DNA of 64,000 nucleotides from positions 1,949,941 to 2,013,940 of the forward strand of contig JACQXA010000004.1 in the NCBI GenBank assembly GCA_016208975.1. Direction: 5' to 3'. Below are positions 9,289 to 24,560 of this stretch, in pieces. Within the stretch, counting starts at the first letter, position 1, and each line of letters starts with the position of its first letter. The notes under the pieces are model-generated. The model was not told where the DNA came from, did no database searches, and saw nothing but the letters and a program-made list of their open reading frames with translations. Made by a program: the position numbers and the translations under genes. The stretch is from Nitrospinota bacterium (lineage in GTDB: Bacteria > Nitrospinota_A > UBA7883 > JACRLM01).

Positions 9289-11900
9289 CCCAAAGCCCGG
9301 CAAACCGCCCAGCCAGGCCGTTTTCGGTTTTTGCCCTCTTTTTTCTCATCGGCCTGTTTTTTTCATGGCCGCTGGCTGGAAACCTATTCAATTCCATTCC
9401 ATACGCGTATATTCCCGCGGCGGAGCTTTTAAAATCGAAGCTTATCCAGGGAGACCATCTTCAGTTTTACTATCATCTGGGTCTGCTCAAACACGCCGCG
9501 TTGGGGCATATAGAGTGGTTTACTAACCCTCTGGAATTCGCCACGGAATACCAGAGTAAAGGCTTTTACAGCTATTTCATGCCGCTCTCGTTTCTTTATT
9601 TGCCGTTCACTGCCGTTTCAACGCCACTGGCCTACAACCTGTTCCTGCTGATAACGTTCGCTCTCGGCGGGCTGGCCATGTATTTATGGGCGTGGCAGGT
9701 TACCGGCAACCGGTTTGCGGCGCTTATGGCCGGGGTGGTGTTCAACTTCGCGCCCATAAGGCAGGTGGAGCTTTTTGGAGGCCATCCCGCCGGATTCGCC
9801 ATATTCATGGCCCCGCTGACCATGTATTTTTTTGACCGGGCCATGGCCAGCCGGAAAATCGCGCAGGGCGTTCTGGCGGGGCTTTGCGCGTTCCTGCTGG
9901 CGTTCCAGTATCTCCAGTTCGGTTATTACATGCTGATGTTCCTGATTGTGTACATCCCATGGATGGTCTGGACATCCACAACAGGCTCAGGTTTGAATTA
10001 TAAAACGGCGCTCCGCGCTTTTGCGCCAACAATGGCCCCGTTCCTCACGGGTTTGGCCGGGGCTGTCGGCTGGATGTACTACTTCAAGAAATCGGCCGTG
10101 AAAGAGGCCGTGTTCTCCGCCGGGCGCACCATGGACGAGATAAGCCTTTTTTCCCCGAAACTTTCTTCCGCGTGGGATCCGGACACGGATTTCAGCGTTT
10201 ACATCGGCCTGCCGCTTCTGATGGTAGTAGCCGCGCTGGCCCTGGGCGTGGCGGCGTTAAAGTGGAAGTCCAATTCGATGAGAGACGCCATTTTCTTCAG
10301 CGCCGTTTTCGTGTTGGCGTACATCCTCTCTTTCGGCGTAACGCTGAACGGGATTATTCCGCTGTACACGGTGTTCTATAAATATTTCCCTTATTTCAAC
10401 CTTTCCCGCACCCCCGCCAAGATGATGCTGGTGTCGCTTATGTCCATCGCCATGCTAACGGCGGTATTGGCGGCATGGTCCATAGAAAAAGAGCGCTGGC
10501 GACGGGTTGCGGGAGTTGTCCTGATCGCCTTCACCCTTGTGGTAATGGCGGACTGGCGCCCGGCCAGAGGGGTGGGGATGTGCGTCCTTGACGAGGGCAA
10601 CGCCATATATAAAGATGCGGCTCAGCGAGACGGCGGGAAAATACTGAACCTGCCCATATGGCCCGGGGAAAGCTCCTGGGAGTCTATCTATCAGTATTAC
10701 GCCATATCCAGCGGGGCGCCGATGATCAACGGCTATTCCCCCCTGGTGTCCAAACGGTACGCCGAAAACGTCTTCATGCCCCTCTTTTCATTAAACGCCG
10801 GGGATGTCACCCAGAAACAGGCCCACCTGTTGAAAGAGCTGGGGGTGACAAACATAATATTCCACGAAGAGGCATATCCGCCCAAGGTGTCGGCCTATCC
10901 GGCCGGTCTGGCTGTGGCGAGACTGGCCAGGTCTCCCTATCTAAAGCTTGTGAGGCATGAAGGGCCGTTATGGCTTTTCGAGCTTTCGCCGGAGAGTGGG
11001 GAGGGGAAAGCGGAAACCATTCAGGTATCATCCCCGGTGGGAGTGTTTTACGAAGCGGAACATCTGGCCCCTATTGGGGGAAAACGTGTTGAGGATAAGC
11101 GAGCCTCTGGCGGCATTGCGCTTTTGATGGAAAAAGCGGAGCCCGGCAATCCCGCTGGCATAATAAACGCCGGGCCGTACAGGACTTTTCCGTCCGGAAA
11201 ATATACGGCCGTGTTCCGCATGAGAACCGTTGACGGGATCCCGGCGGAGGCCCCGGTGGCCAAACTGGACGTGGCCGCCGATGAGGGACGGACAATTGTA
11301 AAATGGCGGAAAGTCAACGGCGCCGAGTTTGGCCAGGATGGCGGGTATCAGGATATACAGCTGGAGTTTGAGCTTGCCCCCGGCGGCGCATGGCAATTGG
11401 AGTTTCGCGCCTATCTTGCGGGGAGCGCGCCTGTATGGCTGGACAGCGTGTATGTATTGCCAGCCGAAAGGGTTGACCCCCAGTTTGAATTCGAGGCAGA
11501 AGAGCTTTTCCATACGGGTGACGCGATAAAAGATGAAAACGCCTCCGGAGGTCTGGTGGTGCGGGCGGAGCCGGGGAAAGATCCCATAGGCCCAATGGTT
11601 TTCGGCCCATGGCGGATGTTTGAAGCGGGGGACTATTCGTTACGTGTTTATATGCGCTCAGAATGCCCTGCCGGAATCCAGGGCGGCGCAGGCGTTTCCA
11701 TCCACAAGGGTGGAGAGGGTAAACTGATAATGAAAAGTGATACGCCGCCCGCGGGTCAGGCTGGCAGTGGATATGGTGAAACCGCCCTTAAGTTCCACCT
11801 GGACGAAAAAGGGCCGCTGGAGTTTAAGGTGGTTTTTAGCGGAGCCTGCGCGGTGATGGTTGATAAATTGCGGGTTGAAGCTGATAAAACCTCCAATTGA
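9285..11900 (+). CDS. Large polytopic membrane protein with two C-terminal CBM-like domains (YfhO/GT-C-like)
   Basis: The first about 430 residues hold roughly ten to twelve hydrophobic segments with loops like those of GT-C/YfhO-type lipid-linked glycosyltransferases. A soluble region follows (about 440-590). Residues about 595-735 and 740-870 are two related beta-rich modules, both beginning with an EAE motif then ASGG, with GPxRxF and GxYxxxxxMR further on. This is the pattern of CBM6/35-like carbohydrate-binding domains, probably outside the membrane. The gene starts at an ATG overlapping the acyltransferase stop. I do not recognise a named orthologue. A role in glycan transfer onto lipids or proteins is inferred from topology, the carbohydrate-binding modules and the acyltransferase partner. 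Confidence 0.75.
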   Translation: MTQSPANRPARPFSVFALFFLIGLFFSWPLAGNLFNSIPYAYIPAAELLKSKLIQGDHLQFYYHLGLLKHAALGHIEWFTNPLEFATEYQSKGFYSYFMPLSFLYLPFTAVSTPLAYNLFLLITFALGGLAMYLWAWQVTGNRFAALMAGVVFNFAPIRQVELFGGHPAGFAIFMAPLTMYFFDRAMASRKIAQGVLAGLCAFLLAFQYLQFGYYMLMFLIVYIPWMVWTSTTGSGLNYKTALRAFAPTMAPFLTGLAGAVGWMYYFKKSAVKEAVFSAGRTMDEISLFSPKLSSAWDPDTDFSVYIGLPLLMVVAALALGVAALKWKSNSMRDAIFFSAVFVLAYILSFGVTLNGIIPLYTVFYKYFPYFNLSRTPAKMMLVSLMSIAMLTAVLAAWSIEKERWRRVAGVVLIAFTLVVMADWRPARGVGMCVLDEGNAIYKDAAQRDGGKILNLPIWPGESSWESIYQYYAISSGAPMINGYSPLVSKRYAENVFMPLFSLNAGDVTQKQAHLLKELGVTNIIFHEEAYPPKVSAYPAGLAVARLARSPYLKLVRHEGPLWLFELSPESGEGKAETIQVSSPVGVFYEAEHLAPIGGKRVEDKRASGGIALLMEKAEPGNPAGIINAGPYRTFPSGKYTAVFRMRTVDGIPAEAPVAKLDVAADEGRTIVKWRKVNGAEFGQDGGYQDIQLEFELAPGGAWQLEFRAYLAGSAPVWLDSVYVLPAERVDPQFEFEAEELFHTGDAIKDENASGGLVVRAEPGKDPIGPMVFGPWRMFEAGDYSLRVYMRSECPAGIQGGAGVSIHKGGEGKLIMKSDTPPAGQAGSGYGETALKFHLDEKGPLEFKVVFSGACAVMVDKLRVEADKTSN

Positions 11901-11952
11901 CCCTGTATGTTACAATGGCCAGCTTAGAGAGATCATAGGCGCGGATAATAAA

Positions 11953-12816
11953 TTGAGCAGGCTGGAACAACAACAGATCCTCGAATTTGTGGACAAGCTC
12001 CCGGGTTTTTCCCCGGCGGCGCTGAAGATAATATCTTTGGCCAACAATCCCAACACTTCCCCCACGGAGTTGGTAAACGCCATAAGCATGGACCCCATGC
12101 TTACCGCCAAGATGCTCAAGCTTGTAAACTCGGCCTATTTCGGTTCGCGCGGCGTTGCCTCACTTAACCGGGCTGTGATGCTTCTGGGTTTCAACACGGT
12201 CAAGAACATATCCTTGTCCCTGGCGGTGGTGGGGGGCATCCGTGTGCGGGGCGAGTTCAAGTGGTTCACCAACGACCAGTTCTGGGAACATTGCCTGGCG
12301 TGCGCCATAGTCACAAAGAGCCTGGCCAAAAAGATGAATGTGGGGGCGCTGGAGGTTGAGGAGTTTTTCGTGGCCGGCCTGGTGCACGACATGGGGCTGG
12401 CGGCGCTGATACAGAAAATGCCCAAGGAGATGGGGGATATTTACGACCCGTCCTATCAGCCCGAGCGTCCGCGGCACAACGTGGAGAAGGAAATGCTGGG
12501 TTTCTCCCACCCCGAGCTGTCCGGGCTTATCGCCCGGCGGTGGAAATTCCCGCCATCGCTGGTGGCGGCCATCGAACATCATCACGACCCTCTCGCGGCG
12601 CCCGAGGAGCATCGCAGGCTGGCCGCCGCGGTGCACCTTGCCGACAGTGGTTGCCACTCCCTAAAAATAGGTATTCAAACCGAGATAAATATTGGTAATA
12701 TCACAAAAGAAGAACTTGCCGCCGCCGGGCTGGAGCCGGACCAGGTTGAAGAAAGCCTGGTGGGCCTGCCGGAAGCGGTGGAAGGCGCCAGGTTCTTCCT
12801 AGAGAAGGTGGACTAA
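11953..12816 (+). CDS. HDOD-domain protein
   Basis: Residues about 8-210 form an HDOD domain, an HD-superfamily regulator that usually lacks hydrolase activity. The start of the domain (LPGFSPAALKIISLANNP) and an HD pair in GLVHDMGL are visible, and a later AIEHHHDP matches the typical helix. HDOD proteins act in signalling, motility and DNA-damage or c-di-GMP responses. The start is uncertain: TTG at 11953 gives LSRLEQQQ and is preferred. A TTG at 11860 in the same frame would overlap the upstream gene by 41 bases, and no ATG lies near. It is followed after nine bases by an MBL-fold gene, probably in the same transcript. Confidence 0.85.
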   Translation: MSRLEQQQILEFVDKLPGFSPAALKIISLANNPNTSPTELVNAISMDPMLTAKMLKLVNSAYFGSRGVASLNRAVMLLGFNTVKNISLSLAVVGGIRVRGEFKWFTNDQFWEHCLACAIVTKSLAKKMNVGALEVEEFFVAGLVHDMGLAALIQKMPKEMGDIYDPSYQPERPRHNVEKEMLGFSHPELSGLIARRWKFPPSLVAAIEHHHDPLAAPEEHRRLAAAVHLADSGCHSLKIGIQTEINIGNITKEELAAAGLEPDQVEESLVGLPEAVEGARFFLEKVD

Positions 12817-12825
12817 AAAGCAGTC

Positions 12826-13716
12826 ATGCAAATCCAGTTTTGGGGGGTTCGAGGCTCCATTCCCTCACCTGCGCCGGACACGGCGCAATTCGGGGGCAAC
12901 ACACCATGTGTTGAGGTTCGCAACGAGGGGGAGCCGGTCATAATACTGGACTCCGGCACTGGCATCCGCAAGCTGGGGATGGAGATAATGAAAGACCCCT
13001 CGGTGCGGGAGATACACATTCTCCTCTCCCACACCCATTGGGACCATATTCAGGGCCTCCCCTTTTTCGCGCCTCTGTTCAGCCCCAAATACACCATAAA
13101 ACTATACGGCCCCGTCCATTACTCCAAGAACCTGGAGCAGATTTTAAGCCTGCAGATGGACTATACCTATTTCCCCGTGAGGGTAGAGGAGCTGGCGGCC
13201 AACCTTTCTTTCCACGACATAAACGAGCAGGAACTCACCATCGGCAAGGGTGTCAGCATAAAGACCAAATTTGTGAACCATCCTGTGGTGTGCCTTTCAT
13301 ACCGCATTACCCACAACGGCAAGTCTTTCGTTTATTGCACGGACCATGAGCCGTACAGGAACCTTTTCGATGACGGAGACGAGCTTAACCGCGAAGAGGG
13401 CAGGCTTGTGGCCGAAGAGCAGACCGAGGCGCTGATAAGGTTCATGGAAGGCTCAGACCTTCTGTGCATGGACGCCCAGTACACGCCGGAGGAATACCGC
13501 ACAAAGATAGGCTGGGGCCATTCCCATGTGGACTACACTTACAGCATGGCCAGGGAGAGCGGCGTGGGTGAGCTGGTGCTGTTCCATCATGACCCGGACA
13601 GGACCGACTCGGAGCTCATGAAAATCCTCAGCGGCCTGCAGGACCGTTCATGGAGCCCTGTCAGCGGCGCCGTCCCTGTCCGCCTTGCCAGGGAGCGGCT
13701 GGTAATCACGCTGTGA
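12826..13716 (+). CDS. MBL-fold metallohydrolase (RNase Z/phosphodiesterase-like)
   Basis: A 296-residue cytoplasmic protein of the metallo-beta-lactamase superfamily. The metal motif HTHWDHIQG (about 68-76) is clear. Later ligands include the histidine of KFVNHPV, the aspartate of YCTDHEP, DAQYT, GHSHVDY and FHHDPDRTD. The N-terminus MQIQFWGVRGSIPSP is typical of the subgroup annotated as beta-lactamase-domain or class-III cyclic-nucleotide phosphodiesterase-like proteins. The substrate may be a cyclic nucleotide or another phosphodiester; this is not certain. It follows the HDOD gene closely and precedes DUF502 by 28 bases. Confidence 0.85.
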   Translation: MQIQFWGVRGSIPSPAPDTAQFGGNTPCVEVRNEGEPVIILDSGTGIRKLGMEIMKDPSVREIHILLSHTHWDHIQGLPFFAPLFSPKYTIKLYGPVHYSKNLEQILSLQMDYTYFPVRVEELAANLSFHDINEQELTIGKGVSIKTKFVNHPVVCLSYRITHNGKSFVYCTDHEPYRNLFDDGDELNREEGRLVAEEQTEALIRFMEGSDLLCMDAQYTPEEYRTKIGWGHSHVDYTYSMARESGVGELVLFHHDPDRTDSELMKILSGLQDRSWSPVSGAVPVRLARERLVITL

Positions 13717-13744
13717 TTCCCCCCAGTAGCTGGCTCACCGGCCT

Positions 13745-14434
13745 ATGACCTCCGTCGCCCACAGCATAAGAAGGATATTCTTCACCGGGCTTCTGGTGAG
13801 CCTTCCGCTGGTCATTACCATATTCATATTCAAGTTCGTTTTCGAGTTGTTCGACGGCCTTTTAGGGCCGGTGGTGACAACGGCCATCAGGATAATGGGC
13901 GCGCCCATACCTCCCGATTTCCGCATACCAGGCATAGGCGTGGTAAGCACCATCGCGGTGATCTTTTTCATCGGCCTGGTGTCGGCCAATTACCTGGGCA
14001 GGAAACTGTGGGACATGGCCGAGACGGCTTTAACCAAAATACCCATAATCCGCTCGGTGTACATCGCCGCAAAGCAGGTGATAGACACATTTTCCACCAG
14101 CAACGGCGCGGCCTTCCGCAAGGTGGCGCTGGTGGAGTACCCGCGGAAAGGGATGTTTTCGCTGGCGTTTATAACCGGAACCACGCGCGGAGAGGTGGCC
14201 CAGAGGCTGGGCGGGGAGATGGTGAACATCTTCATCCCCACCACGCCCAACCCCACCTCGGGATTCCTGCTTATCCTGCCCAAAGAGGCTGTTATTGAAC
14301 TTGACATGGCGGTTGAGGATGGCGTTAAGATGATCGTGTCATGCGGGCTGGTTGTGCCCCCCACCGCTGGGGCTATTGTGGAGGGGAATCGCTCCGCTCC
14401 TTCTGACGAGCCCGTTTCTAATGGAAGTGTTTAA
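13745..14434 (+). CDS. DUF502 family membrane protein
   Basis: A 229-residue protein with two transmembrane segments (about 10-35 and 60-85). The conserved DUF502 body includes GIGVVSTIAVIFFIG, a proline-rich IPIIRSVYIAAKQV stretch, and GFLLILPKE near the end. DUF502 proteins are widespread in Gram-negative bacteria and have no established function. The ATG lies 28 bases after the MBL-fold gene and the stop is six bases before the DUF5674 gene, so it is inside a plus-strand operon. Confidence 0.88.
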   Translation: MTSVAHSIRRIFFTGLLVSLPLVITIFIFKFVFELFDGLLGPVVTTAIRIMGAPIPPDFRIPGIGVVSTIAVIFFIGLVSANYLGRKLWDMAETALTKIPIIRSVYIAAKQVIDTFSTSNGAAFRKVALVEYPRKGMFSLAFITGTTRGEVAQRLGGEMVNIFIPTTPNPTSGFLLILPKEAVIELDMAVEDGVKMIVSCGLVVPPTAGAIVEGNRSAPSDEPVSNGSV

Positions 14435-14439
14435 AGAAA

Positions 14440-14781
14440 ATGTCTGGGAAGTTTTGCGTACAAATAATCTCTAAAAAGGCTGGCTCAGGCCTCATTAAAA
14501 AACTGGCCGCGGGGTTCGAGGGCGAAATTAAGGCGGTGGTGGACGTCAAGCGTTCCATCATCGCCGCCGGTTGCGAATGGCACGACGAGGCGCGGGACAT
14601 GCTGGTGAAGAACGGCTCCGACTCCGACGATTTGTGGGGGGCCAGGGTTTGCGTGAAAAGCGGAGACATCATCTTCAAATCGCAGATAAACGAGGGCAGG
14701 GTGGGCGCCGAGAAAAACGAAATTTGCGACCAGGAGATCCGCTCCGAAGTGGAGTCGGTAATTAGGCAGTTGCTTATCTAA
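14440..14781 (+). CDS. DUF5674 family small protein
   Basis: A 113-residue soluble protein. The order of features (KAVVDVKRSIIAAGCEWHDEA, then a GSDSDDLWGARV element and an FKSQINEGR motif) matches the DUF5674 family as I remember it: small proteins of about 110 residues with no known function. It starts five bases after DUF502 and meets the ATP-grasp gene tail to tail with a 12-base gap. The assignment rests on motif recall, not on a search. Confidence 0.7.
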   Translation: MSGKFCVQIISKKAGSGLIKKLAAGFEGEIKAVVDVKRSIIAAGCEWHDEARDMLVKNGSDSDDLWGARVCVKSGDIIFKSQINEGRVGAEKNEICDQEIRSEVESVIRQLLI

Positions 14782-14793
14782 CCCCGGCCGTCT

Positions 14794-16029
14794 TTATATC
14801 GCTCCTTCGGCCGCAAGCCTGGCTCCGTTGATGATCATCTCCCGTTCTTCCGGTCCAGCGCCAATTATAACGGCGGAAAGCTCCTCGCCGCCCGTGTCCA
14901 TGGGCAGGGCTCCCCGTTTGGTTAGAGGGTTGAACGCAAACTCACCCAAAACCTCCAGCCACCGGGCCGCGGAGAAAACTTTTCCCGGGGCCGGTATCCT
15001 CACGCTGGCTCCAAGCCCAGTATCAGCCATCACCATCGGGTCGCCAGTCAAGGCGCGGTTTACAAACCAAAGGGCGGCTGTGGAAGTGTTGTGCCGGGCG
15101 TTCATCTCCACAGCGTAAACTTTCCGGGTCTGGCCGGTCACAATAAAATCCACTCCCACCACGCCTCTTAGCCCCAACAGCGCCGCCTCCCTTGCCAGGT
15201 GATGGCCCTGATCCAGAAGCTCCGCCCTCACGCGCCCGTCGGGATGGATGTCGAAAAGGTTGCCCGTATGTTTTAAATCCGCGGACATCACCTGGGCGCT
15301 CTGCCCGAAAAGGATTGCTTCATTGTCTGTGATGTAAAACTGCAGGTTGGGGCTTTCCTCCACATCCATAAGAGGCTGGAGCACATAAAGGCCGCCACCT
15401 TGCCGCTCCACACGGCTGGCCAGCGCCAGCTTTTCATCGGCGTCTCGCGCTATAAACACCCTGGAGCCGCCGACGCTTTTCGCTCCTCGGACGATGATGG
15501 GACCACCGTTCCATTTTCTTATCCGGGACGCCACCGCGTCGCTGTTGCCTGAATAGGAAGGGATGAACGGCATACCCATGTCTTCCAGGAGGCGCAGGAA
15601 GAAAGCCTTGTCGTTCAACAGGTCCACCACTGCGGGATTGGTGAATCCGCCACGTTTGCCCGCCATATCCATAATCCTGTTTTCAACCGGACCCATTATG
15701 TATGGCTCCACGCCCCCTTGCCAGCGCCGGATAAACTCCATGACGCCGGGGCTTTTTATTACGTCATCGGCCAGGGAAGCGCCTGCGGACACTTCGGGGG
15801 TAAGGATATCGGCCCCGCCAGCGCCGAGGGAGCGAAGAAGGCCCAGATAGTTTTCTTCCACCTGCCCATCCAGGATTACCGGGTCTTCCGGCCCCGCCAT
15901 CAGGAGCGCCCGGCGCGAAAGGCGTTTTAAAGCCCGCTCGAAATTAAGGTAGTCGCTGGACTTTTCCGGCCATATCTCCCTGCCCCGGGTGAAATGCACG
16001 CTGGGCAAGTGAAGCAAAGGGTTTCTCAA
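14794..16029 (-). CDS. ATP-grasp ligase, possibly preATP-grasp/PGM1-like
   Basis: The stop of the upstream activator gene (TGA at 16028-16026) overlaps a TTG at 16029, giving TTGA. The same frame is open 330 bases further upstream but there reads as low-complexity Arg/Gly sequence inside the activator gene, so TTG is the likely start (411 residues). The N-terminus (LPSVHFTRGREIW) and the long preceding Rossmann-like part recall preATP-grasp peptide ligases. The ATP-grasp core (about 190-390) includes PIIVRGAKSVGGSRVF and the metal-binding AVEMNARHNTST. The family joins a carboxylate to an amine using ATP. No substrate is evident. It is the last of four overlapping genes with TolC and a GspE-type ATPase. 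Confidence 0.72.
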   Translation of the reverse strand: MRNPLLHLPSVHFTRGREIWPEKSSDYLNFERALKRLSRRALLMAGPEDPVILDGQVEENYLGLLRSLGAGGADILTPEVSAGASLADDVIKSPGVMEFIRRWQGGVEPYIMGPVENRIMDMAGKRGGFTNPAVVDLLNDKAFFLRLLEDMGMPFIPSYSGNSDAVASRIRKWNGGPIIVRGAKSVGGSRVFIARDADEKLALASRVERQGGGLYVLQPLMDVEESPNLQFYITDNEAILFGQSAQVMSADLKHTGNLFDIHPDGRVRAELLDQGHHLAREAALLGLRGVVGVDFIVTGQTRKVYAVEMNARHNTSTAALWFVNRALTGDPMVMADTGLGASVRIPAPGKVFSAARWLEVLGEFAFNPLTKRGALPMDTGGEELSAVIIGAGPEEREMIINGARLAAEGAI

Positions 16030-17390
16030 TTCTTGCCCTTCCGCCTGTAGCCGGATGGATCCACTCCCGCCGCTTTCATTTTTGAATAGAGGGTTTTTCT
16101 GTCCAGCCCGGCCTGTTGCGCAACAGCGCTTATGTTCCCTGAGAACCTGGCAAGTAGCGACTGGAAATAGTTTCTTTCCACGGCGATCAAGGCTTTCTCG
16201 CGCATCTGCCGGTAGGGCAGGGCGGCCAGGCCCTCCTGCGCTTCGCTTTTTACCGGCAGGGTTCCAAGTCCTACGTCGGCCTCCCTTATAATTCCATCTC
16301 TGGCCACTATCACCGCCCGCTCCATGGCGTTTTCCAGTTCGCGCACGTTGCCGTCCCACCGGGCGGCGGCAAGTTTGGCCATGGCGGCCGGGTCTATGGA
16401 ATGGGCGGCCCGGCCATGCCGGGCGGCGTATTGTAACAGAAAATGCTCCGCCAGAGCCGGGATGTCCCCGGGCCGTTCCCGCAGGGGCGGCACATGCACC
16501 GGGAATGTGTTGATCCTGTAATAAAGGTCCCGCCGGAACCTTCCTTCGGCCACGTCGGCGGCCAGGTCCCGGTTGGTGGCGAAGATAAGCCGGATATCCG
16601 TTTTTATAACGGTGTTGCTTCCCAGCCTTTCCACCTCGCCTGTCTCAAGCGCCTTTAAAAGCTTCACCTGGGTTGCGGGGCTTATCTCGCCGATTTCGTC
16701 CAGGAACAGGGTGCCGCCATGGGCTATCTCGAACTTGCCCGGCTTTTCCCGGATGGCGCCGGTGAAAGCCCCCTTCTCATGCCCGAATAACTCCGATTCC
16801 AGCAACGACTCGCTGAGGGCGCCGCAGTTGATGGTGACAAACTTCATTCCCCCTCTACGACTGAGCTTGTGCACCGCCGCCGCGATAAGCTCTTTGCCCA
16901 CACCGGTCTCGCCATGGATTAGCACCGCCGAGTCGGTTCCCGCCACCGAGCGTATGGTTTCGTAAAGGCCCAGCATTTTCTCCGCCCGGCCGATGATGCC
17001 GCAGAAGTCCCGCTCTTGCCCTGCCCCGCTTCCGGCCATGGCGATGGCCCGTTCCAGCGTCTCGTCGGAATAGGGTTTTGTCAGGGCGCAAATGGCCCCG
17101 GCGTGGAGGAAGGTTTTTTCCAGCGCCTCGTCGGCCCCGCCAAGAAGGATGACTATGGGCGACCCCGGGGATTTGGAGCGGATGTGGGCCATTATGTCAG
17201 TAGGGCCTGGTGTGGGAAACCTGGGGTCCGCGAAGATTATGTCAAACCGTCCGGAATATATCTCCAGCCTGTCCACCTCCTGCCATGCGTAAGCGGCCCG
17301 GGCGGCCCACCCGAGTCTTTCCAGCTTACCGCGAAGGCTTTCCACGGCATGCCTGTCCAAATCCACGATAAGGGCGGAACCGGCGTTCAT
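16026..17390 (-). CDS. Sigma-54-dependent transcriptional activator (NtrC-type) with degenerate receiver
   Basis: Residues about 5-120 form a receiver domain with D10/D12, the phospho-acceptor D55 (IIFADPRFP) and K105, but the usual Thr/Ser at the end of strand 4 is Gly (VILLGG), so signalling may be altered. Residues about 132-370 are the AAA+ domain with Walker A GETGVGKE (160-167) and the sigma-54 contact loop GAFTGA (207-212). A Fis-type helix-turn-helix ends the protein (SAVAQQAGLDRKTLYSKMK). Its ATG overlaps the TolC stop and its own stop overlaps the ligase start. No partner kinase is adjacent. Targets are unknown; its own operon is a candidate, though I could not find a sigma-54 promoter upstream of it. 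Confidence 0.92.
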   Translation of the reverse strand: MNAGSALIVDLDRHAVESLRGKLERLGWAARAAYAWQEVDRLEIYSGRFDIIFADPRFPTPGPTDIMAHIRSKSPGSPIVILLGGADEALEKTFLHAGAICALTKPYSDETLERAIAMAGSGAGQERDFCGIIGRAEKMLGLYETIRSVAGTDSAVLIHGETGVGKELIAAAVHKLSRRGGMKFVTINCGALSESLLESELFGHEKGAFTGAIREKPGKFEIAHGGTLFLDEIGEISPATQVKLLKALETGEVERLGSNTVIKTDIRLIFATNRDLAADVAEGRFRRDLYYRINTFPVHVPPLRERPGDIPALAEHFLLQYAARHGRAAHSIDPAAMAKLAAARWDGNVRELENAMERAVIVARDGIIREADVGLGTLPVKSEAQEGLAALPYRQMREKALIAVERNYFQSLLARFSGNISAVAQQAGLDRKTLYSKMKAAGVDPSGYRRKGKN

Positions 17391-18973
17391 GGCGCTTCCA
17401 GGCTAAGCTCTACCCCGGCCTTAGCGAGAGCCAGCCCTACGGCTTTCCAGTATCTGGCGGCGGCTTTCCGGGCTGAACCCTGGGCCAACAGTTCCGCGGC
17501 GCGCTGGGCCACCAGTTCTTTCTGGTATTCGAGGACAGCGAATGGCGTTGTGGCCCCGGCCTCCAGTTTTTTTGTTTCCCCGTCCAGCCGTTTTTCCGCC
17601 AGTTCCCGAGCCGCCCTGGCCGCCACTGTCTGTTTTAATCCCGAAGCCAGATTGCGCGCCGCCTCGCGGACCTCCAGCGCCGCGTCACGCCGGGCCATTT
17701 CAAGCCTGGTTTGCGCCGCCTTCAGGTTTAACCCCGCCAGCGCCGCCGCTGATGACGCCCCCCGGGAGTCCAGCGGGAGAGAGAATTTAAGGCCCACCAT
17801 GTAATCGTAGTAATTGCCCGAAACCACATCCGACACAGAGTCGGAAAAACCTCCATTGAGCGGCGACAAAAGCTCCCCCTCGCCGGTGAGGCTCGTTACT
17901 GGGCGCGCCTCTCCCCGAAGGCCGGAAAGATTTACCGTTCCCACCATGTCCAGCCCGGGCAGGGTTTGGTTGTTGCGGTATAAAAGCTCGGCCCGCCGGT
18001 TCTCCACCTCCATTTGCGCCGCCAGGATATCCGGCCGCAACGATAAAGCCTGCTCCAGCGCCTCCAGGCTCTCTTCCGGCGGGCTTTCCGGCTCCGGGGC
18101 TCCTCCAGGTTCCAGCGTGGTATCCCACCAGGCTGGATCTTTTCCCCGGGAACCCATGAGCTTTATCAGGTTGTCGGAAGCCCCGCAGTATGAGTTTTCT
18201 GCGGCGATAAGTTTCTCCTCCCAGGAGGCCACCGAAGCCTGGGCGGCGATGATCTCGATGGGCGCCAGCGCCCCCGCTTTCACCTGGGCGGTCACCCGCC
18301 GTTCCAGGTCGCGCGCCCTGTCCAGCGCCTCTTTTTGCGCCTGAACGTTTTCCTTTTGATAAACCAGGTCCCAGTACGCTTCCTGGGTCCTGGTCACAAT
18401 GTCGCTCAAGGCGGTTTTAAGCTTGTAGAACGCCATGTCCCGCTTGGCCTCGGCGGAAGTGATGCGCCACCGGTTCACGGATATGCCCGCGTTTTTAAGC
18501 ACCGGTTGGGTAAGCTCCAGCTTTAATCCCGCGCCGTAAGAGGGATTGAGACTCTGGAATGAGGAGTTGGTGGTTTCCCTGGATGTTGTGGCCGCCAGCT
18601 TGTACTGGGTACCCGGCTGGGCCTTGCCGGATATGGAAATCTCGCCGCTTTGAACGTCTTTTTCAACCACCGCCGGGTCGGCGAAAACGGAGGAGCTGGG
18701 GGTGGCGCTCTTTCCCGCCGCCGCCTCCGCCCCGAACTGCGGATCGAACTCGGACAGGGCCGATACCAGCTCGGTTCCCGCCGCCGCCGAGTTTATCCAT
18801 TCAAGCGTCCCGTCGAAATTCCCGGCCACCGCCTCGGTTACGGCCTGGGATAGCGTGATTTCGGTGATGCGGGCGGAACCGGCCAGGGCTGGCCCAGGCC
18901 AGGTAAAGGCCGTTATAAGGCATAGGCGGGCCGGAAAAAGAAAAACCGCCGGCCATGAAGACCGGAAGGTCAT
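17387..18973 (-). CDS. TolC-family outer-membrane channel protein
   Basis: A 528-residue protein with a likely signal peptide (about 1-32, ending ALAG). It carries two repeats of the outer-membrane-efflux-protein fold: long coiled helices rich in Ala, Glu, Arg and Leu (about 195-290 and 405-520) and beta-strand segments such as YYDYMVGLKFSLPLD. TolC trimers form the exit duct of efflux pumps and type I secretion systems. Unusually, no membrane-fusion protein or inner-membrane pump is adjacent. Its ATG overlaps the ATPase stop and its stop overlaps the activator start, by four bases each. The partners are therefore unknown; the GspE-type ATPase in the operon is an intriguing candidate. Confidence 0.9.
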   Translation of the reverse strand: MTFRSSWPAVFLFPARLCLITAFTWPGPALAGSARITEITLSQAVTEAVAGNFDGTLEWINSAAAGTELVSALSEFDPQFGAEAAAGKSATPSSSVFADPAVVEKDVQSGEISISGKAQPGTQYKLAATTSRETTNSSFQSLNPSYGAGLKLELTQPVLKNAGISVNRWRITSAEAKRDMAFYKLKTALSDIVTRTQEAYWDLVYQKENVQAQKEALDRARDLERRVTAQVKAGALAPIEIIAAQASVASWEEKLIAAENSYCGASDNLIKLMGSRGKDPAWWDTTLEPGGAPEPESPPEESLEALEQALSLRPDILAAQMEVENRRAELLYRNNQTLPGLDMVGTVNLSGLRGEARPVTSLTGEGELLSPLNGGFSDSVSDVVSGNYYDYMVGLKFSLPLDSRGASSAAALAGLNLKAAQTRLEMARRDAALEVREAARNLASGLKQTVAARAARELAEKRLDGETKKLEAGATTPFAVLEYQKELVAQRAAELLAQGSARKAAARYWKAVGLALAKAGVELSLEAP

Positions 18974-21189
18974 CGGGGCGCCCGCTCCGCGATTCTGGCC
19001 AGCCGTTTGTCAGCCTCGTTCAAGCGGCTCACCAGGGAGTGGATTATCTTGAGGGCTATCTCGGGGTAGTTCTCGATGGTCTGTTTAAGCTTGTCGCCCG
19101 GGAATACTTTCACCATGCTCTTGCCCTTGGAGCGGATGGTGGCCGTGCGCGGCTGGTCCATCAGCGCGCTCATCTCGCCGAAATATTCGCCCGGTTGTGA
19201 GATTTCCCCCACCACCCTGCCGCTTTTGGTGATGATAAGGTGGCCCTGCAGGAGCTGGTAGAAGTTCTTGTCGGTGTTGCCCTCTTTTATTATCAGGTCC
19301 CCATCTTCGAATGTCAGTTCGTCCGGGTTGAGCAGGTAGGCCGGGAGCGCTTCTTTCACCAGCACGGTCTTGGCCAACACTTCCTCCAGGCTGGTCATGC
19401 CCAGCCGCGCCTTATCCAGCGCGTCCATGCGGAGGGTTTTCATTCCTTCCTTTATGGCTATCTTCCGCAGGGCGGCCTCCTGCACTTGGGCCGTTATGGC
19501 CTCTTTCACCGTCTGGGAGGCCTCCAGCATCTCAAAAACACCCAACCGGCCCTTGTATCCGGAGCCGTTGCATATGGTGCAACCCTTGCCCTTGTACAGG
19601 GTGTAATGGGGCACCTCCTCCTTGGCTACGCCCGCCTCCAGCAGATCCTGCGGATTGAAGTCGGTGACTTCAACCTTGCAACTGGCGCACACCCGGCGCA
19701 AAAGCCGCTGGGCTATGACAACCGTAAGCGCCGAGGAGATCATGTAACCGGGTATGCCTATGTCCAGCAGGCGGCCTATGGTGGAGGCGCAGTCGTTGGT
19801 GTGCAGGGTGGAGAACACCATGTGGCCCGTCATGGCCGCCTTTATGGCTATCTCCGCCGTCTCCATGTCGCGAACTTCGCCCACCAGTATCACGTCCGGA
19901 TCCTGCCGCAAAAAAGCCTTTAGCGCCGAGGCGAAGGTAAGCCCCACCTCCGGCCGCACGTTCACCTGGTTTATGCCGGTGAAGTTGAACTCCACCGGGT
20001 CTTCTGCGGTGAGTATCTTCACGTCCGGTTTGTTTAGTATGTTGATGCCCGAATAGAGGGTGTTGGTCTTGCCGGAGCCTGTGGGCCCGGTGACCAGCAC
20101 AAGCCCCTGGGGCCGCCGGATAAGCTCCAGGAACCGCGTCAGCATTTTTTCCGTGAAGCCCAGCTTCGTAAGGTCTATCTGTAGCTTGCTCTGGTCCAGC
20201 AGGCGGAGCACCATGGATTCGCCGAATAGCGTGGGTAGCACGTTCACGCGGAAGTCTATGGATTTGCCCCGGCCAAGCTTAAGCTTTATCCTGCCGTCCT
20301 GGGGGCGGCGCTTCTCAGCTATGTTCAGGTTGGACATTATCTTCAGCCGCGAGATCAGGGCGCCCTTGATGGTCAACGGCAGGTTCATGGCCCGGTGCAG
20401 GGAGCCGTCTATCCTGTACCGCACCTGGAAGCTTTTTTCGTATGGCTCTATGTGAATGTCCGAGGCCCCCTGGCTTATCCCCTTGAGCAGGATGCCGTTG
20501 ACAAGCTTTACTATGGCCGCGTCGGCGGAGTTGTAAAGCTGGTCCTTGTCCTCGTCTTCGGAGGTGGAGTCTATCTCCACCTCCTCGGTGGCGTCGGATA
20601 TGATCCCTCCGATGTCGTCGAACTTTTCGAATATCTGCTTGTCGTCCCCTTCGGGCTTTTCCTCATGCACCTCGCCGGCGGTGGCCAGGGCGGTGTAGTC
20701 TTCGCTGGAGATGGCGTAGTATTTCTTGAACGCCTCCAGCAGGTCCCGCTCGGAGACCACGGCGGGTTTTATGGTCTGCTTTACATGGGAACCCACCTGC
20801 TCCAGCGTGGCGTAATTGGTGGGGTCTATCATGGCCAGCCGCAGGTTCTTCCCGTCGGAGCGGATGGGGAATATCAGGTTGTCCCGCGCCATCTCCCAGG
20901 GAATCATCTTGATGGCCTCGGCGTCCGGCTTTTCGTCTTCTATGTTAGTGATCGGGATGGCGAGAGACCGGGCGATGAATTTGATTATGGTCTCTTCATC
21001 CAGGTACCCGAGCTTCTGGACAACCTTGCCTATGCGGGCGTTGGCTTTCTTCTGGTACTCTTCAGCCTCTTTTAGCTGGGACCGGGTAATCTGCCCGTCC
21101 TTGACCAAAAGCTTTCCCAGCACCTCGGAGGAAGCATCCTCCTTAACGCTTTTTTTGAAGCTGGTCTTTTTTTCCGCTATTTCAGCCAT
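18970..21189 (-). CDS. GspE/PilB-type secretion ATPase with C-terminal cyclic-nucleotide-binding domain
   Basis: A 739-residue protein. Residues about 20-150 resemble an MshEN domain, which in relatives binds cyclic di-GMP. The secretion ATPase core (about 210-600) has Walker A GPTGSGKTNT (about 368-377), DPDVILVGEVRDMETA (Walker B region) and the zinc-type tetracysteine CASC...CTIC. Residues about 625-739 are a cyclic-nucleotide-binding domain with GEYFGEMSALMDQPRTATI, including the phosphate-binding Arg. The core family drives type IV pilus or type II secretion assembly. The C-terminal CNB domain is an unusual addition and could couple the motor to cAMP or a related ligand. The gene heads the overlapping operon that continues into TolC. 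Confidence 0.9.
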   Translation of the reverse strand: MAEIAEKKTSFKKSVKEDASSEVLGKLLVKDGQITRSQLKEAEEYQKKANARIGKVVQKLGYLDEETIIKFIARSLAIPITNIEDEKPDAEAIKMIPWEMARDNLIFPIRSDGKNLRLAMIDPTNYATLEQVGSHVKQTIKPAVVSERDLLEAFKKYYAISSEDYTALATAGEVHEEKPEGDDKQIFEKFDDIGGIISDATEEVEIDSTSEDEDKDQLYNSADAAIVKLVNGILLKGISQGASDIHIEPYEKSFQVRYRIDGSLHRAMNLPLTIKGALISRLKIMSNLNIAEKRRPQDGRIKLKLGRGKSIDFRVNVLPTLFGESMVLRLLDQSKLQIDLTKLGFTEKMLTRFLELIRRPQGLVLVTGPTGSGKTNTLYSGINILNKPDVKILTAEDPVEFNFTGINQVNVRPEVGLTFASALKAFLRQDPDVILVGEVRDMETAEIAIKAAMTGHMVFSTLHTNDCASTIGRLLDIGIPGYMISSALTVVIAQRLLRRVCASCKVEVTDFNPQDLLEAGVAKEEVPHYTLYKGKGCTICNGSGYKGRLGVFEMLEASQTVKEAITAQVQEAALRKIAIKEGMKTLRMDALDKARLGMTSLEEVLAKTVLVKEALPAYLLNPDELTFEDGDLIIKEGNTDKNFYQLLQGHLIITKSGRVVGEISQPGEYFGEMSALMDQPRTATIRSKGKSMVKVFPGDKLKQTIENYPEIALKIIHSLVSRLNEADKRLARIAERAPR

Positions 21190-21378
21190 AGTCCGGTGAT
21201 GTTATAAAACACGCCATCAAAGCAGGGAAAACCGGAAGCGCACGCTCCGCCCCATTTAATTATAAAAACTTAGGAGGCCCCAGTCTATGAATTATATTTG
21301 AATGGCTTGAGCCAGCGGGCCCTGGTTTATAAGGATGGACATTTAAAATTGGCGGCGGGATTTTAACGAGGCTCTTTA

Positions 21379-22563
21379 TTAATTGCCCGCCCAAATAAAT
21401 TTTACGGGTTTGCCCTGCTTTTCGATAAGCACGATATCGTAAGGCCAGTCTTTCTGCTGAGGAAGGTTTTGGGCCTCGACAGGAGCCCATTGGCGCACCA
21501 CCACCTCCACGGTCTTTTCCCGCGCCACAACCCGTTCCACTCCTATCCGGTGCCCTTGCGCCGGTTTTTCTCCGGCGAAGACCGCTATAAGGCTTACAGC
21601 CTCGAAATTAAAGGGTGGCGACGTTTGTTCGTTGATGTTCAACTCGGCCAGGAGTTTGGAGTAATCTTTCCCGTTGTCCACCAACGTGGCCCTGGGGCCT
21701 TTGATACCCGATGGATTGGCGTTGGGGAGCGTTGTCGGGTTGAACCTCAGGATAAGCCCGCTCTGCGCGCCATCCTGGTCATCCCAGTGCATGTAATATT
21801 CCTCCGGCGTGTTGCGGACTATCTCCGCCACCGCACTGTCTATACAGACTCTCGCCGCCTGCTCCGCGCCTGTTCCCTGGAATCCACCTAACCCCACCGG
21901 CACGCGCGACCAGCCGCCGCCCACGCCCCCCACTATGCCACCGCCCCAGTCCTGGGTTCTGCCTTCAACAGAATTGGCGTGGACCACCCTGCCGGTGCGG
22001 GCGTCCACTATCTTGATGTCGGTGGTGATGTAAGACTCGGTGTAGGTGACAGCGCCTATGGGGGTGTCTCCCTGGTTGTTGGCGTTTATGGCTATGGATG
22101 CCCCCAGGGTTAACGCGCCGATAAGGATTCCTCCGGCCCCGAAAGCGTCTTTCTCAAAACCGGTGACGGCCCCGAACACCAGAAGCTCAGCCCCTTCGAT
22201 CTGACCGGTTTGCGCCGCGGTGGCTTCCGATATCCGGCCTGCGGCGGCGAAGTCCTGCTCGTTGATGACGGCGTTGAGATCCTGCCGGTCCAGCATTATG
22301 AAGCGGTTCGTATTGAACAGGGCGGTGGTGAGCATGTCGGCCATGCCCTCGCCCATGGAGCCTTCCAGCTTTCCGCCGGTCTTGTCCACGAACTTCACCA
22401 CCGACAACCTGGCCTTGGGGCCGTTGTAACGCTCTTCCATGGCCTGGGCCATGGTTGGGCCGCCCCCTCCGCGAACCGTGGCTGTGGGCGCCGTGGCGCA
22501 GGCGGAGGTGAAAGTGAGAATCATGGCGGCCATCGCCGCCGAAAGCCTAAGCCTGGGTTTCAT
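21379..22563 (-). CDS. CsgG/HfaB-family outer-membrane lipoprotein
   Basis: A 394-residue protein with a lipoprotein signal peptide and lipobox FTSAC (Cys about 21). The CsgG-like region (about 50-240) shows LSVVKFVDKTGGKLEGSMGE, a nucleotide-fold-like stretch and Gly-rich GAGGILIGALTLGAS, then DIKIVDARTGRVV. CsgG forms the export pore for curli subunits; many homologues are single genes with unknown cargo. No curli genes are near. The last about 100 residues (after about 290) are an extra domain of unknown type. It lies 189 bases upstream of the GspE/TolC operon on the same strand. Functional linkage to that operon is possible but unproven. Confidence 0.82.
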   Translation of the reverse strand: MKPRLRLSAAMAAMILTFTSACATAPTATVRGGGGPTMAQAMEERYNGPKARLSVVKFVDKTGGKLEGSMGEGMADMLTTALFNTNRFIMLDRQDLNAVINEQDFAAAGRISEATAAQTGQIEGAELLVFGAVTGFEKDAFGAGGILIGALTLGASIAINANNQGDTPIGAVTYTESYITTDIKIVDARTGRVVHANSVEGRTQDWGGGIVGGVGGGWSRVPVGLGGFQGTGAEQAARVCIDSAVAEIVRNTPEEYYMHWDDQDGAQSGLILRFNPTTLPNANPSGIKGPRATLVDNGKDYSKLLAELNINEQTSPPFNFEAVSLIAVFAGEKPAQGHRIGVERVVAREKTVEVVVRQWAPVEAQNLPQQKDWPYDIVLIEKQGKPVKFIWAGN

Positions 22564-22622
22564 ATCTGTCGTGAACCGGTTGACGCCTTTTACCTAACGA
22601 GTTTAGCACCAAACAGGCCCGG

Positions 22623-24560
22623 TCACATTATGAACCGGCCAACGCGGGGGATGAAATCGCTCTCCTCCACGGGTTTTGTTAGGAAGTCCGCCGCGCCCAG
22701 GCGGAACACCTGTTCCCGGGTTTCCACGTCGCTGTCGGAGGTGATGACAATAACCGGCGTATCCTTGAGCTTCGGCATGTCCTTGATCCGCTTTAACAGC
22801 CCCAGTCCATCCAGGCTTGGCATGTGGACGTCGGATATAATGAGGTCTGGCGTTCTCTCTTCCAACAGCTTCAGGGCGAGGTCGCCGTCTTCGGCCTCCA
22901 CGGTTTGCGCCCCCATCTTGCCCAGGTGGATTCTCAGGGTTTGCCGCATCACGTCGCTGTCGTCCACTATCAGTATGAGGGGCTGGGACGGCCCCATGTC
23001 CATGCAGAAAGACGAGCCTTTACCCGGCTCAGACTCCAGCTGGATGGTTCCACCGTGGGCTTTCATGATGTCCATGCAAAGCGGAAGCCCGAAGCCCGCG
23101 CCCCTTTCCCCCGAGGAGCCGGAAGTGCTGGTTTTTGTCTCATGGCGGAAAAGGTCCGGCTTCAGGGATTCGAGCACCCCCGGCCCCGTGTCCTTGACGC
23201 ACAGCAAGTTTGGGCCGGGGGAGTGGATCACCACCCTGTCCCCCTTGGCGCAGAATTTCACCGCGTTGCTGATGAGGTTTAAAAGGACTTCGTGGATGAG
23301 CGCCATGTCCCCGTAAATCTTCAAGGTTTCCGGGATGTCCACATTTATGGAAATGCCCTTGCGCTCCGCCTGGAACGATACGGAGGCGGCGGTGGCTTGG
23401 GCCAGCGCCCTGGCGTTTACCAGCCTTCGGTTGAGTCTGATCTTTCCCATGTTCATCCTGCTGATATTCAGCAGTTGGTCGGTCATTTTCAGAAGGTCGT
23501 CGCAGGTGTTCAACGCCCTTTTCATAAGGGTGGCGCGGTCTTCTTCGCTCATGGCCGGTTCCCCAAGGATAAAATTGAGGATGCCGATAACCGTAGCCAT
23601 CGGGGACCTTAAATCGTGAGACACGAGCGATACGAACTTGTCCTTGAGCATGGTGGCGTCTTCGGCCAGTTCCTTGGCCTGTTTCAGCTCCGCCTCGGCC
23701 TTCTTCCTTTCGGTCATGTCCCGCCCGATACCCTGTACCCCAACCGGCTTGCCGTCGCTCCATATCAGCCTGGTGGAAAGCTCCACCGGTATCCTCTTCC
23801 CGTTTTTTGCCACCACCTCCAGTTCGTACAAGGTGGAAATGGCTTCGCCCTTGAGCTTTTTCTGGATGCTTTCCGTGGTGGTCTTTAAATGTTCCGGAGG
23901 CACCACCATGGAGATGCTCGAGCCGATAACTTCATCCTCGCCAAAGCCCAAAACGTTTACGCATGCTTTGTTTATGGTGGTAAAACGCCCCTCCAGGTCG
24001 TGGGAGTAAAGCAGGTCGTTGGCGTTGAGGAAAAGGTCTTTATATTTCTCTTCGCTGGCTTTCAGCGCCGCCTCGGTGGCCTTGCGCTCGGTAACGTCCC
24101 TGGCCACGCCGAAGATCTCCTCTTCGCCCCTGGCGTTCTTTATAAGCATACCCTTGAATTCCAGGATGAGGACCTGGCCGCTCTTGTTTCGTATCCTAAG
24201 CTCGTTTACGGGCGGCGCTTCCATCTCCTGTACCCGCTGGAGGTTTACCCTGGCCTTCTCCATATCGTCCGGATGCACCAGCCCATTGAAATTTTTTCCG
24301 ATCCATTCCTCTACCGGCCAGCCGGTGATCTTATGGAATGCCGGGGTTAGGGAGGTGAAAATCCCGTCCCTTGTCATGGTGTAAACGTAATCCCGGAGGT
24401 TTTCAAGAATATCCTTGTAGCTGTCCAGCCGGTCGTTGAGCCCGGTGTTTTCATGGCGAACCTGCTCCAGCTCTTTTTCCAATGACTCCACGCGGGCGCG
24501 CAGGGTTTTGGCCTCTCCGTCCCCCCGGTGGCCGGACAACAGCTGATCGAAAATAGGCAT
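22623..24560 (-). CDS. Hybrid histidine kinase: PAS-PAS-HisKA-HATPase-REC
   Basis: A soluble 645-residue kinase. A short coiled coil (about 18-45) precedes two PAS domains (about 50-170 and 172-290). A HisKA domain follows with the phospho-acceptor histidine in FVSLVSHDLRSPM, then a HATPase domain with the N, G1 and G2 boxes (LISNAVKFC, DTGPGV, GAGFGLPLCMD). A C-terminal receiver (about 525-645) contains the acidic pair DDSD, the phospho-acceptor in LIISDVHMPSLDG and the conserved Lys in FLTKPV. No transmembrane segment is present, so it senses a cytoplasmic cue. No cognate output protein is adjacent; the Fur gene is divergent. The input is unknown. Confidence 0.92.
   Translation of the reverse strand: MPIFDQLLSGHRGDGEAKTLRARVESLEKELEQVRHENTGLNDRLDSYKDILENLRDYVYTMTRDGIFTSLTPAFHKITGWPVEEWIGKNFNGLVHPDDMEKARVNLQRVQEMEAPPVNELRIRNKSGQVLILEFKGMLIKNARGEEEIFGVARDVTERKATEAALKASEEKYKDLFLNANDLLYSHDLEGRFTTINKACVNVLGFGEDEVIGSSISMVVPPEHLKTTTESIQKKLKGEAISTLYELEVVAKNGKRIPVELSTRLIWSDGKPVGVQGIGRDMTERKKAEAELKQAKELAEDATMLKDKFVSLVSHDLRSPMATVIGILNFILGEPAMSEEDRATLMKRALNTCDDLLKMTDQLLNISRMNMGKIRLNRRLVNARALAQATAASVSFQAERKGISINVDIPETLKIYGDMALIHEVLLNLISNAVKFCAKGDRVVIHSPGPNLLCVKDTGPGVLESLKPDLFRHETKTSTSGSSGERGAGFGLPLCMDIMKAHGGTIQLESEPGKGSSFCMDMGPSQPLILIVDDSDVMRQTLRIHLGKMGAQTVEAEDGDLALKLLEERTPDLIISDVHMPSLDGLGLLKRIKDMPKLKDTPVIVITSDSDVETREQVFRLGAADFLTKPVEESDFIPRVGRFIM

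What the first reader, a model, noticed from the sequence alone, without database searches (positions are those of the whole stretch)
14794..21189. Overlapping four-gene operon: secretion ATPase with CNB domain, TolC channel, sigma-54 activator and ATP-grasp ligase
Three successive four-base stop/start overlaps (ATGA, ATGA, TTGA) tie together a GspE/PilB-like motor with a nucleotide-sensor domain, an outer-membrane channel, an NtrC-type activator and a peptide-ligase-like enzyme. Known type I or type II secretion clusters do not have this content: no fusion protein, no pseudopilin and no ABC pump is present. It may be a novel export, surface or peptide-modification system under its own control. 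Order and overlaps are seen; a joint function is inference.
Basis: partly seen in the sequence, partly recalled or inferred. Interest (0 to 1): 0.75.

Follow-up and report, generated by a model that had tools for sequence, protein, structure and literature searches.

The report
Pilus motor with cyclic-nucleotide sensor
In one class of Nitrospinota bacteria, the likely motor protein for extending type IV pili carries an extra domain predicted to bind cAMP or cGMP, which would let that signal control pilus growth directly; its gene heads a conserved gene cluster with an outer-membrane channel, a gene regulator and a peptide-ligase-like enzyme whose product is unknown.

Summary
In detail: four minus-strand genes overlap by ATGA, ATGA and TTGA. 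The order is conserved: ATPase and ligase genes share a contig in 18 of 23 genomes of the class. The export-system reading is not supported. The ATPase is PilB, the type IVa pilus extension motor: the only protein over the curated PilB cut-off here, and in each of the 16 class genomes that have one. The pilT-pilC-pilS cluster lacks pilB in 21 of 21 loci read, and in two genomes outside the phylum the same PilB is followed directly by pilM. Unusual is its C-terminal Vfr/CRP-like domain with intact cyclic-nucleotide residues; class III cyclases are in 22 of 23 genomes. I infer direct cAMP/cGMP gating of pilus extension; my paper searches listed no description of it. TolC, a sigma-54 activator and a PGM1/BesA-like ligase form a separable, class-specific rider: one genome keeps TolC and ligase without the pilus genes tested, two keep PilB and ligase without TolC. 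Its product is unknown.

The parts
18970..21189 (-). pilB-CNB: type IVa pilus extension ATPase with an extra C-terminal cyclic-nucleotide-binding domain (739 aa)
19066..19314 (-). cyclic-nucleotide-binding domain of PilB (residues 626-708); FGE (670-672) to R681 at 19147-19182
19375..20523 (-). T2SSE motor core of PilB (residues 223-605)
   Evidence: PF00437 447.4 bits; Walker A GPTGSGKT (368-375) invariant in 44 proteins
20968..21120 (-). N-terminal MshE-type c-di-GMP motif pair (residues 24-74), partly decayed
   Evidence: NF053729 44.7 bits, cut-off 38; 8 of 11 and 5 of 11 motif positions kept (motif from PMC5013675)
17387..18973 (-). TolC-family outer-membrane channel (528 aa)
   Evidence: PF02321 133.3 bits; TIGR01844 101 bits, below its 225 cut-off; ortholog in 19 of 23 class genomes
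16026..17390 (-). sigma-54 activator (NtrC type) with a weak receiver, GAFTGA loop and Fis-type HTH intact (454 aa)
   Evidence: distinct from the PilR-like regulator found elsewhere in the genome
14794..16029 (-). ATP-grasp amide ligase of PGM1/BesA-like fold (411 aa, TTG start)
18970..18973 (-). ATGA overlap pilB/tolC
17387..17390 (-). ATGA overlap tolC/activator
16026..16029 (-). TTGA overlap activator/ligase

Best explanation
The cluster's first gene encodes what is very likely the type IVa pilus extension motor PilB, fused to a Vfr/CRP-like domain that is predicted to bind cAMP or cGMP and so would gate pilus extension directly. Shown here: the protein is the only one over the PilB cut-off in the genome; the pilT-pilC-pilS cluster and the pilM/pilQ cluster lie elsewhere without a pilB; the extra domain follows the end of the PilB family model and keeps the Glu and Arg that hold ribose and phosphate in known cyclic-nucleotide domains (role of these residues recalled); class III cyclase genes are in the genome. 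Inferred: a class III cyclase raises cAMP or cGMP, the domain on each PilB subunit binds it, and the hexamer's ATPase activity or its docking on PilC/PilM changes, starting or stopping extension; in the sister family a stand-alone domain of the same kind encoded just before pilC probably acts on the same machine. The other three genes are a class-specific rider: the ATP-grasp enzyme likely joins an amino acid or short peptide by an amide bond, the TolC-type channel may let the product out in most species, and the sigma-54 activator, whose receiver is decayed in relatives, may act without ordinary phosphorylation. Sharing a transcript would tie this product to the piliated state; that link is the least certain step.
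For: PilB identity: (one protein over cut-off in each of 16 genomes, always PilB-CNB; none in the other 7). Gap filled: (21 of 21 pilC loci read hold no pilB; some contigs are short). PilM directly downstream of PilB-CNB in 2 of 4 loci outside the class, G055 and G109, both outside the phylum. A PilR-like regulator is divergent next to pilB-CNB in G003, G007 and G008, with a receiver fragment at a contig end in G011; the kinase beside pilC has the PilS membrane domain (51.6 bits, cut-off 27). cNMP domain intact. Cyclases: 22 of 23 genomes, six places in this one. Stand-alone cNMP protein next to pilC in the sister family: 7 of 7 loci read, of 10 held; one was confirmed by Pfam (78.6 of 27.5 bits) and five aligned. 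G006 lacks PilB, the PilC ortholog, PilM over cut-off, the PilR-like protein and any class III cyclase but keeps TolC and ligase. Ligase fold.
Against: No binding or motor activity was measured. Co-occurrence alone is not significant because nearly every genome has everything (PilB against PilC or cyclase, Fisher p 0.13; PilR-like 0.07; PilM 0.45). G006 is one small genome, so its joint losses may be independent. G015 has PilB and PilC but no PilM over cut-off and no PilR-like protein; G019 also has no PilM over cut-off; G004 and G009 have PilC and PilM but no PilB (incomplete or lost). Class III cyclases are common and none is linked to this locus. This genome has no stand-alone cNMP gene beside pilC (50 bases between the genes). 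FNR-type proteins, which do not bind cyclic nucleotides (recalled), match the extra domain's fold as well as CRP does. No sigma-54 promoter above chance was found upstream of pilB in 17 of 18 loci, so the activator's target is unknown. TolC and ligase do not always travel together (G015, G016).
Confidence: 0.68

Rival explanations
1. The four proteins form one novel export or surface system: the ATPase drives a substrate, modified by the ATP-grasp enzyme, out through the TolC-type channel.
For: Order and tight junctions are conserved; no ordinary pump partner is among the nine proteins scanned here.
Against: The ATPase is PilB by curated cut-off, fold and context; the parts separate in G006, G015 and G016; PilB-type motors are not known to work on TolC channels (recalled).
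Confidence: 0.08
2. PilB is real but its C-terminal domain is not a cAMP/cGMP switch: it is a structural or docking module, or binds another ligand.
Against: F670-G671-E672 and R681 invariant in 44 proteins that I picked from the 120 listed, some from other phyla by their names; best sequence matches among solved structures are mostly cGMP- and cAMP-dependent kinase domains; cyclases in 22 of 23 genomes.
Confidence: 0.22
3. The cluster is only an economical transcript: PilB has nothing to do with TolC, activator and ligase, which serve ordinary efflux and amino-acid metabolism.
For: Parts are lost independently; outside the class PilB-CNB has other neighbours in 4 of 4 loci.
Against: The arrangement has been kept across the class with short junctions; in the class the ligase gene shares the contig in 18 of 18 genomes where the PilB contig reaches far enough.
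Confidence: 0.4
4. The sigma-54 activator in the cluster is the PilR partner of the orphan PilS.
For: PilS beside pilC has no NtrC-type gene near it in 21 loci; the cluster holds no kinase gene (a hybrid kinase lies two genes upstream, 22623-24560); the window's activator still has the receiver Asp and Lys.
Against: A separate regulator with a strong receiver (100.5 bits) and a different HTH gives one match in each of 19 of 23 genomes and sits next to pilB-CNB in three, with a fragment in a fourth (seven of the 19 matches contain one stop codon); the cluster's activator lacks the Asp in the aligned column in 10 of 10 sister-family copies and in L051.
Confidence: 0.1

Closest known systems
PilB of Geobacter (5zfr, 5tsh, 5tsg), type IVa pilus extension ATPase
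   Different: The PilB family model ends at residue 609 here and the Geobacter alignments at 612; the cyclic-nucleotide domain is extra. pilB is away from pilT-pilC
Vfr / CRP cAMP receptors
   Different: No DNA-binding domain; fused to the pilus motor, whereas in P. aeruginosa cAMP-Vfr acts on transcription of pilus genes (PMC11656802, passages seen)
MshE and related c-di-GMP-controlled pilus ATPases
   Different: Second motif poorly kept (5 of 11), and a second sensor at the other end
PGM1, BesA, SAOUHSC_02373 (LdmS, recalled) and the Streptomyces peptide ligase 8ynd
   Different: 15-18% identity; far below the LdmS (38.7 of 475 bits) and BesA (26.2 of 750) cut-offs; substrate unknown
TolC-family channels
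   Same: OEP family twice
   Different: Under the TIGR01844 cut-off (101 of 225), no pump or adaptor gene among the scanned neighbours

Membership tests
Type IVa pilus extension ATPase PilB | Curated PilB equivalog score (TIGR02538) | tested here: met
   711.6 bits, cut-off 675.65; the genome's five other large ATPases score 486-580
Type IVa pilus extension ATPase PilB | PilB core fold and Walker A | tested here: met
Type IVa pilus extension ATPase PilB | Genome holds PilT, PilC, PilM and PilQ partners | tested here: met
   PilT 362 of 319 bits, PilM 240 of 133, PilQ 438 of 284; PilC-type protein over the Pfam T2SSF cut-off, its best NCBIfam model PilC at 518 of 700. PilN, PilO, PilP and pilin not tested
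Type IVa pilus extension ATPase PilB | Linked to other pil genes | tested here: inconclusive
   Not in the window; PilR-like gene beside it in 3 class genomes plus a fragment in a fourth; PilM beside it in 2 of 4 loci outside the class
Type IVa pilus extension ATPase PilB | Drives pilus extension | not testable with these tools
   needs mutants and pilus imaging
Cyclic-nucleotide-binding domain (PF00027) | Family score and Glu/Arg of the phosphate-binding cassette | tested here: met
   54.9 of 27.5 bits; E672 and R681 invariant in 44
Cyclic-nucleotide-binding domain (PF00027) | Binds cAMP or cGMP | not testable with these tools
   needs calorimetry
Type I secretion system | ABC pump and fusion protein encoded with the TolC channel | tested here: not met
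   none among nine proteins scanned from 11860 to 24560; the rest of the genome was not searched for them
Type II secretion system | GspF, pseudopilins and secretin encoded with the ATPase | tested here: not met
   none in the cluster; the genome's own GspE (703.8 of 630.25 bits) is at L044 with a T2SSF gene beside it
PGM1/BesA-type ligases | Fold over the whole length | tested here: met
LdmS or BesA equivalogs | Curated score | tested here: not met
   38.7 of 475 and 26.2 of 750 bits
PilR | Regulator with a working receiver, partner of PilS | tested here: inconclusive
   Window activator: receiver 31.2 of 30.2 bits, Asp and Lys kept; Asp column lost in 10 of 10 sister-family copies; a separate candidate with a strong receiver exists

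The most novel reading that the evidence does not exclude
The type IV pilus motor itself is a cyclic-nucleotide receptor: class III cyclase signals act on PilB in place of, or before, transcription, and the same transcript supplies a ligase and channel that make and release a small amide-linked compound whenever pili are out, a pilus-coupled secreted signal or surface modifier specific to this class of Nitrospinota.
Probability: 0.2. Interest if true: 0.8.

Novelty: new variant of a known kind. Interest (0 to 1): 0.55.

Why it matters
In Pseudomonas aeruginosa cAMP controls type IV pili through the transcription factor Vfr; in a 2024 review of PilB control the cAMP passages speak of Vfr and of gene expression, and the words 'cyclic nucleotide' and 'cNMP' do not occur (PMC11656802, passages seen). 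Here a Vfr-like sensor is built into PilB, in a phylum that is mostly uncultured (recalled) and, by listed records named for Deltaproteobacteria, Thermodesulfobacteriota and Pseudomonadota, beyond it. That makes direct second-messenger gating of a pilus motor testable with one purified protein. It also corrects a plausible misreading of the locus as a new secretion system, and singles out a class-wide ligase gene of unknown product.

Tried and rejected
Export system powered by the ATPase: rejected on PilB identity and on separable parts. Cluster activator as PilR: first favoured because PilS near pilC is orphan, then lowered when the divergent regulator in L054-L056 proved to be a different protein with a strong receiver, matched once in 19 of 23 genomes. 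'PilR-like' is my label: no PilR model was available, and the likeness of its HTH to PilR is recalled. Sigma-54 promoter upstream of pilB: the best site in up to 320 bases stayed under the shuffled 95% level (17.5) in 17 of 18 loci; L151 reached 18.5. Co-occurrence statistics: not significant for PilB against pilus genes or cyclases; the PilB-ligase and TolC-ligase values (0.01, 0.02) mostly reflect G004 and G009, which lack the whole locus. Viral contigs: four matches of 28 residues at 57%, not followed. The profile search of the ligase against solved structures also lists carbamoyl-phosphate synthetase above PGM1 and BesA.

Papers: no paper held three of cyclic nucleotide-binding, PilB, TolC, ATP-grasp; of 46 holding three of type IV pilus, cyclic nucleotide-binding domain, PilB, extension ATPase, 20 were listed and none of these held 'cyclic nucleotide-binding domain'; three hold PilB, cNMP and type IV pil, none about this by its title; further listings. 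Passages were read only in PMC11656802, PMC5013675, PMC12288465 and PMC11139211; all others were seen as listings. Most subscription papers are not held, so a description elsewhere cannot be excluded.

Counting choices: G001 counts as having PilB from 107 C-terminal residues at a contig end, and G019 and G022 as lacking PilM because no hit passed the cut-off, though G022 has PilM in pieces. Left out: G020 (its pilC is split over two contigs) and G006 (no pilC ortholog); three of ten sister-family loci were not read; two PilB proteins cut at the N-terminus were left out of the N-terminal panel; the G013 and G020 junctions were not tested; one search kept only matches at E 1e-190 or better, and one of these, G249, has PilB without the extra domain.

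Full report
What is there. On the minus strand of the window, four genes run from 21189 to 14794 with three 4-nt stop/start overlaps. The window lies in a 2.97-Mb genome in four contigs. Named relatives of the ligase are Nitrospinae/Nitrospinota; of 13 named loci, nine are titled Nitrospinota, Nitrospinaceae or Nitrospinales, three Nitrospirae and one only bacterium.

Conservation. A search with the ATP-grasp protein in 60 genomes found close orthologs (42-53%) in 8 of the 11 other genomes of its order, plus a contig-end fragment in a ninth, and remote ones (28-34%) in 11 of 11 genomes of the sister family in the class. Reading the neighbourhoods suggests the ancestral order pilB-CNB, tolC, activator, ATP-grasp. 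PilB-CNB and ATP-grasp share a contig in 18 of 23 class genomes. The activator is missing beside the others in seven genomes (G003, G005, G006, G007, G008, G010, G011); tolC is missing in G015 and G016; pilB is missing in G006; G004 and G009 show neither PilB-CNB, TolC nor ligase.

The ATPase is PilB. It is the only one of six large T2SSE-type ATPases in the genome over the PilB cut-off (711.6 of 675.65; the others 486-580). Across the class, 16 of 23 genomes have a protein over that cut-off, one each, and it is always PilB-CNB; of the remaining seven, three hold pieces of it (G016, G021, G022), G001 a C-terminal end, and G004, G006 and G009 none. The predicted structure (mean pLDDT 74, pTM 0.45) has a core that matches Geobacter PilB best. 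The genome has PilM and PilQ in one place (L093), and PilT, a zinc-ribbon protein, a PilC-type protein and a PilS-type kinase in another (L090), with no pilB in the stretches read. The PilC-type protein's best NCBIfam model is Myxococcus PilC (518 bits, under its 700 cut-off). The pilT-pilC-pilS cluster without pilB is in 21 of 21 loci read; some of these contigs are only 3 to 8 kb. Of 385 genomes searched at E 1e-190 or better, four outside the class have PilB-CNB (G023 of the same phylum; G054, G055, G109 outside it) and one, G249, has a PilB without the extra domain. In G055 and G109 pilM follows PilB-CNB directly (PilM_2 226.9 and 249.6 bits), in G054 and G023 it does not; none of the four has tolC, activator or ligase on the 7.5 to 15 kb held. 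All four pass the PilB cut-off (711-749 bits).

A natural experiment. G006 (1.7 Mb, 99% complete) has no protein over the PilB cut-off, no PilC ortholog, no PilM over cut-off, no PilR-like protein and no class III cyclase, but keeps TolC and ligase side by side. It is one genome, and across the 23 the statistics are not significant.

Verdict. The locus is best read as a pilus motor with a built-in cyclic-nucleotide sensor heading a class-specific gene cluster. Identity of the motor is close to certain by comparison; gating is inference from intact residues, position and cyclases; the rider's role is open.

Noticed in passing
window 11860-14434 +: HDOD, metallo-beta-lactamase and DUF502 genes run convergent to the cluster; of the 8 loci of the order L049-L056, DUF502 is near it in 7, MBL in 6 (72-86% identical) and HDOD in 3; none in the 11 sister-family loci. 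The MBL protein has weak similarity to a cyclic-nucleotide phosphodiesterase model (48.4 of 400 bits).
   Followed up: partly
window 21379-22563 -: CsgG/PrcB_C-type protein upstream of pilB; no relative at E 1e-6 in the 21 loci compared.
   Followed up: partly
window 22623-24560 -: PAS-PAS hybrid histidine kinase two genes upstream of pilB; partner unknown.
   Followed up: no
window 14440-14781 +: 113-aa ORF between DUF502 and the ligase gene.
   Followed up: no
L090:14049-14771: Zinc-ribbon protein between pilT and pilC, in 21 of 21 loci read, whose C-terminal part looks by eye like a decayed receiver; only the zinc ribbon passes a Pfam cut-off.
   Followed up: no
L047:7955-10267 and L046:7561-9354: Two further PilB/GspE-type ATPases (770 and 597 aa); none of the genome's T2SSF matches lies near them.
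   Followed up: no
L053:13143-15272, L054:2051-4228, and relatives in L055, L056: Divergent TPR plus Peripla_BP_6 gene (Pfam on two of four), next to the PilR-like gene or, in G006, upstream of tolC.
   Followed up: partly
L057:11084-12166 and 12420-13787: Beyond the ligase gene in the sister family: a convergent 358-360-aa protein (5 loci) without Pfam match in the one scanned, and a Porin_O_P porin (4 loci).
   Followed up: no
G015: Has PilB-CNB and PilC but no PilM over cut-off and no PilR-like protein.
   Followed up: no
L039-L042: Four viral contigs match 28 residues of PilB at 57%.
   Followed up: no
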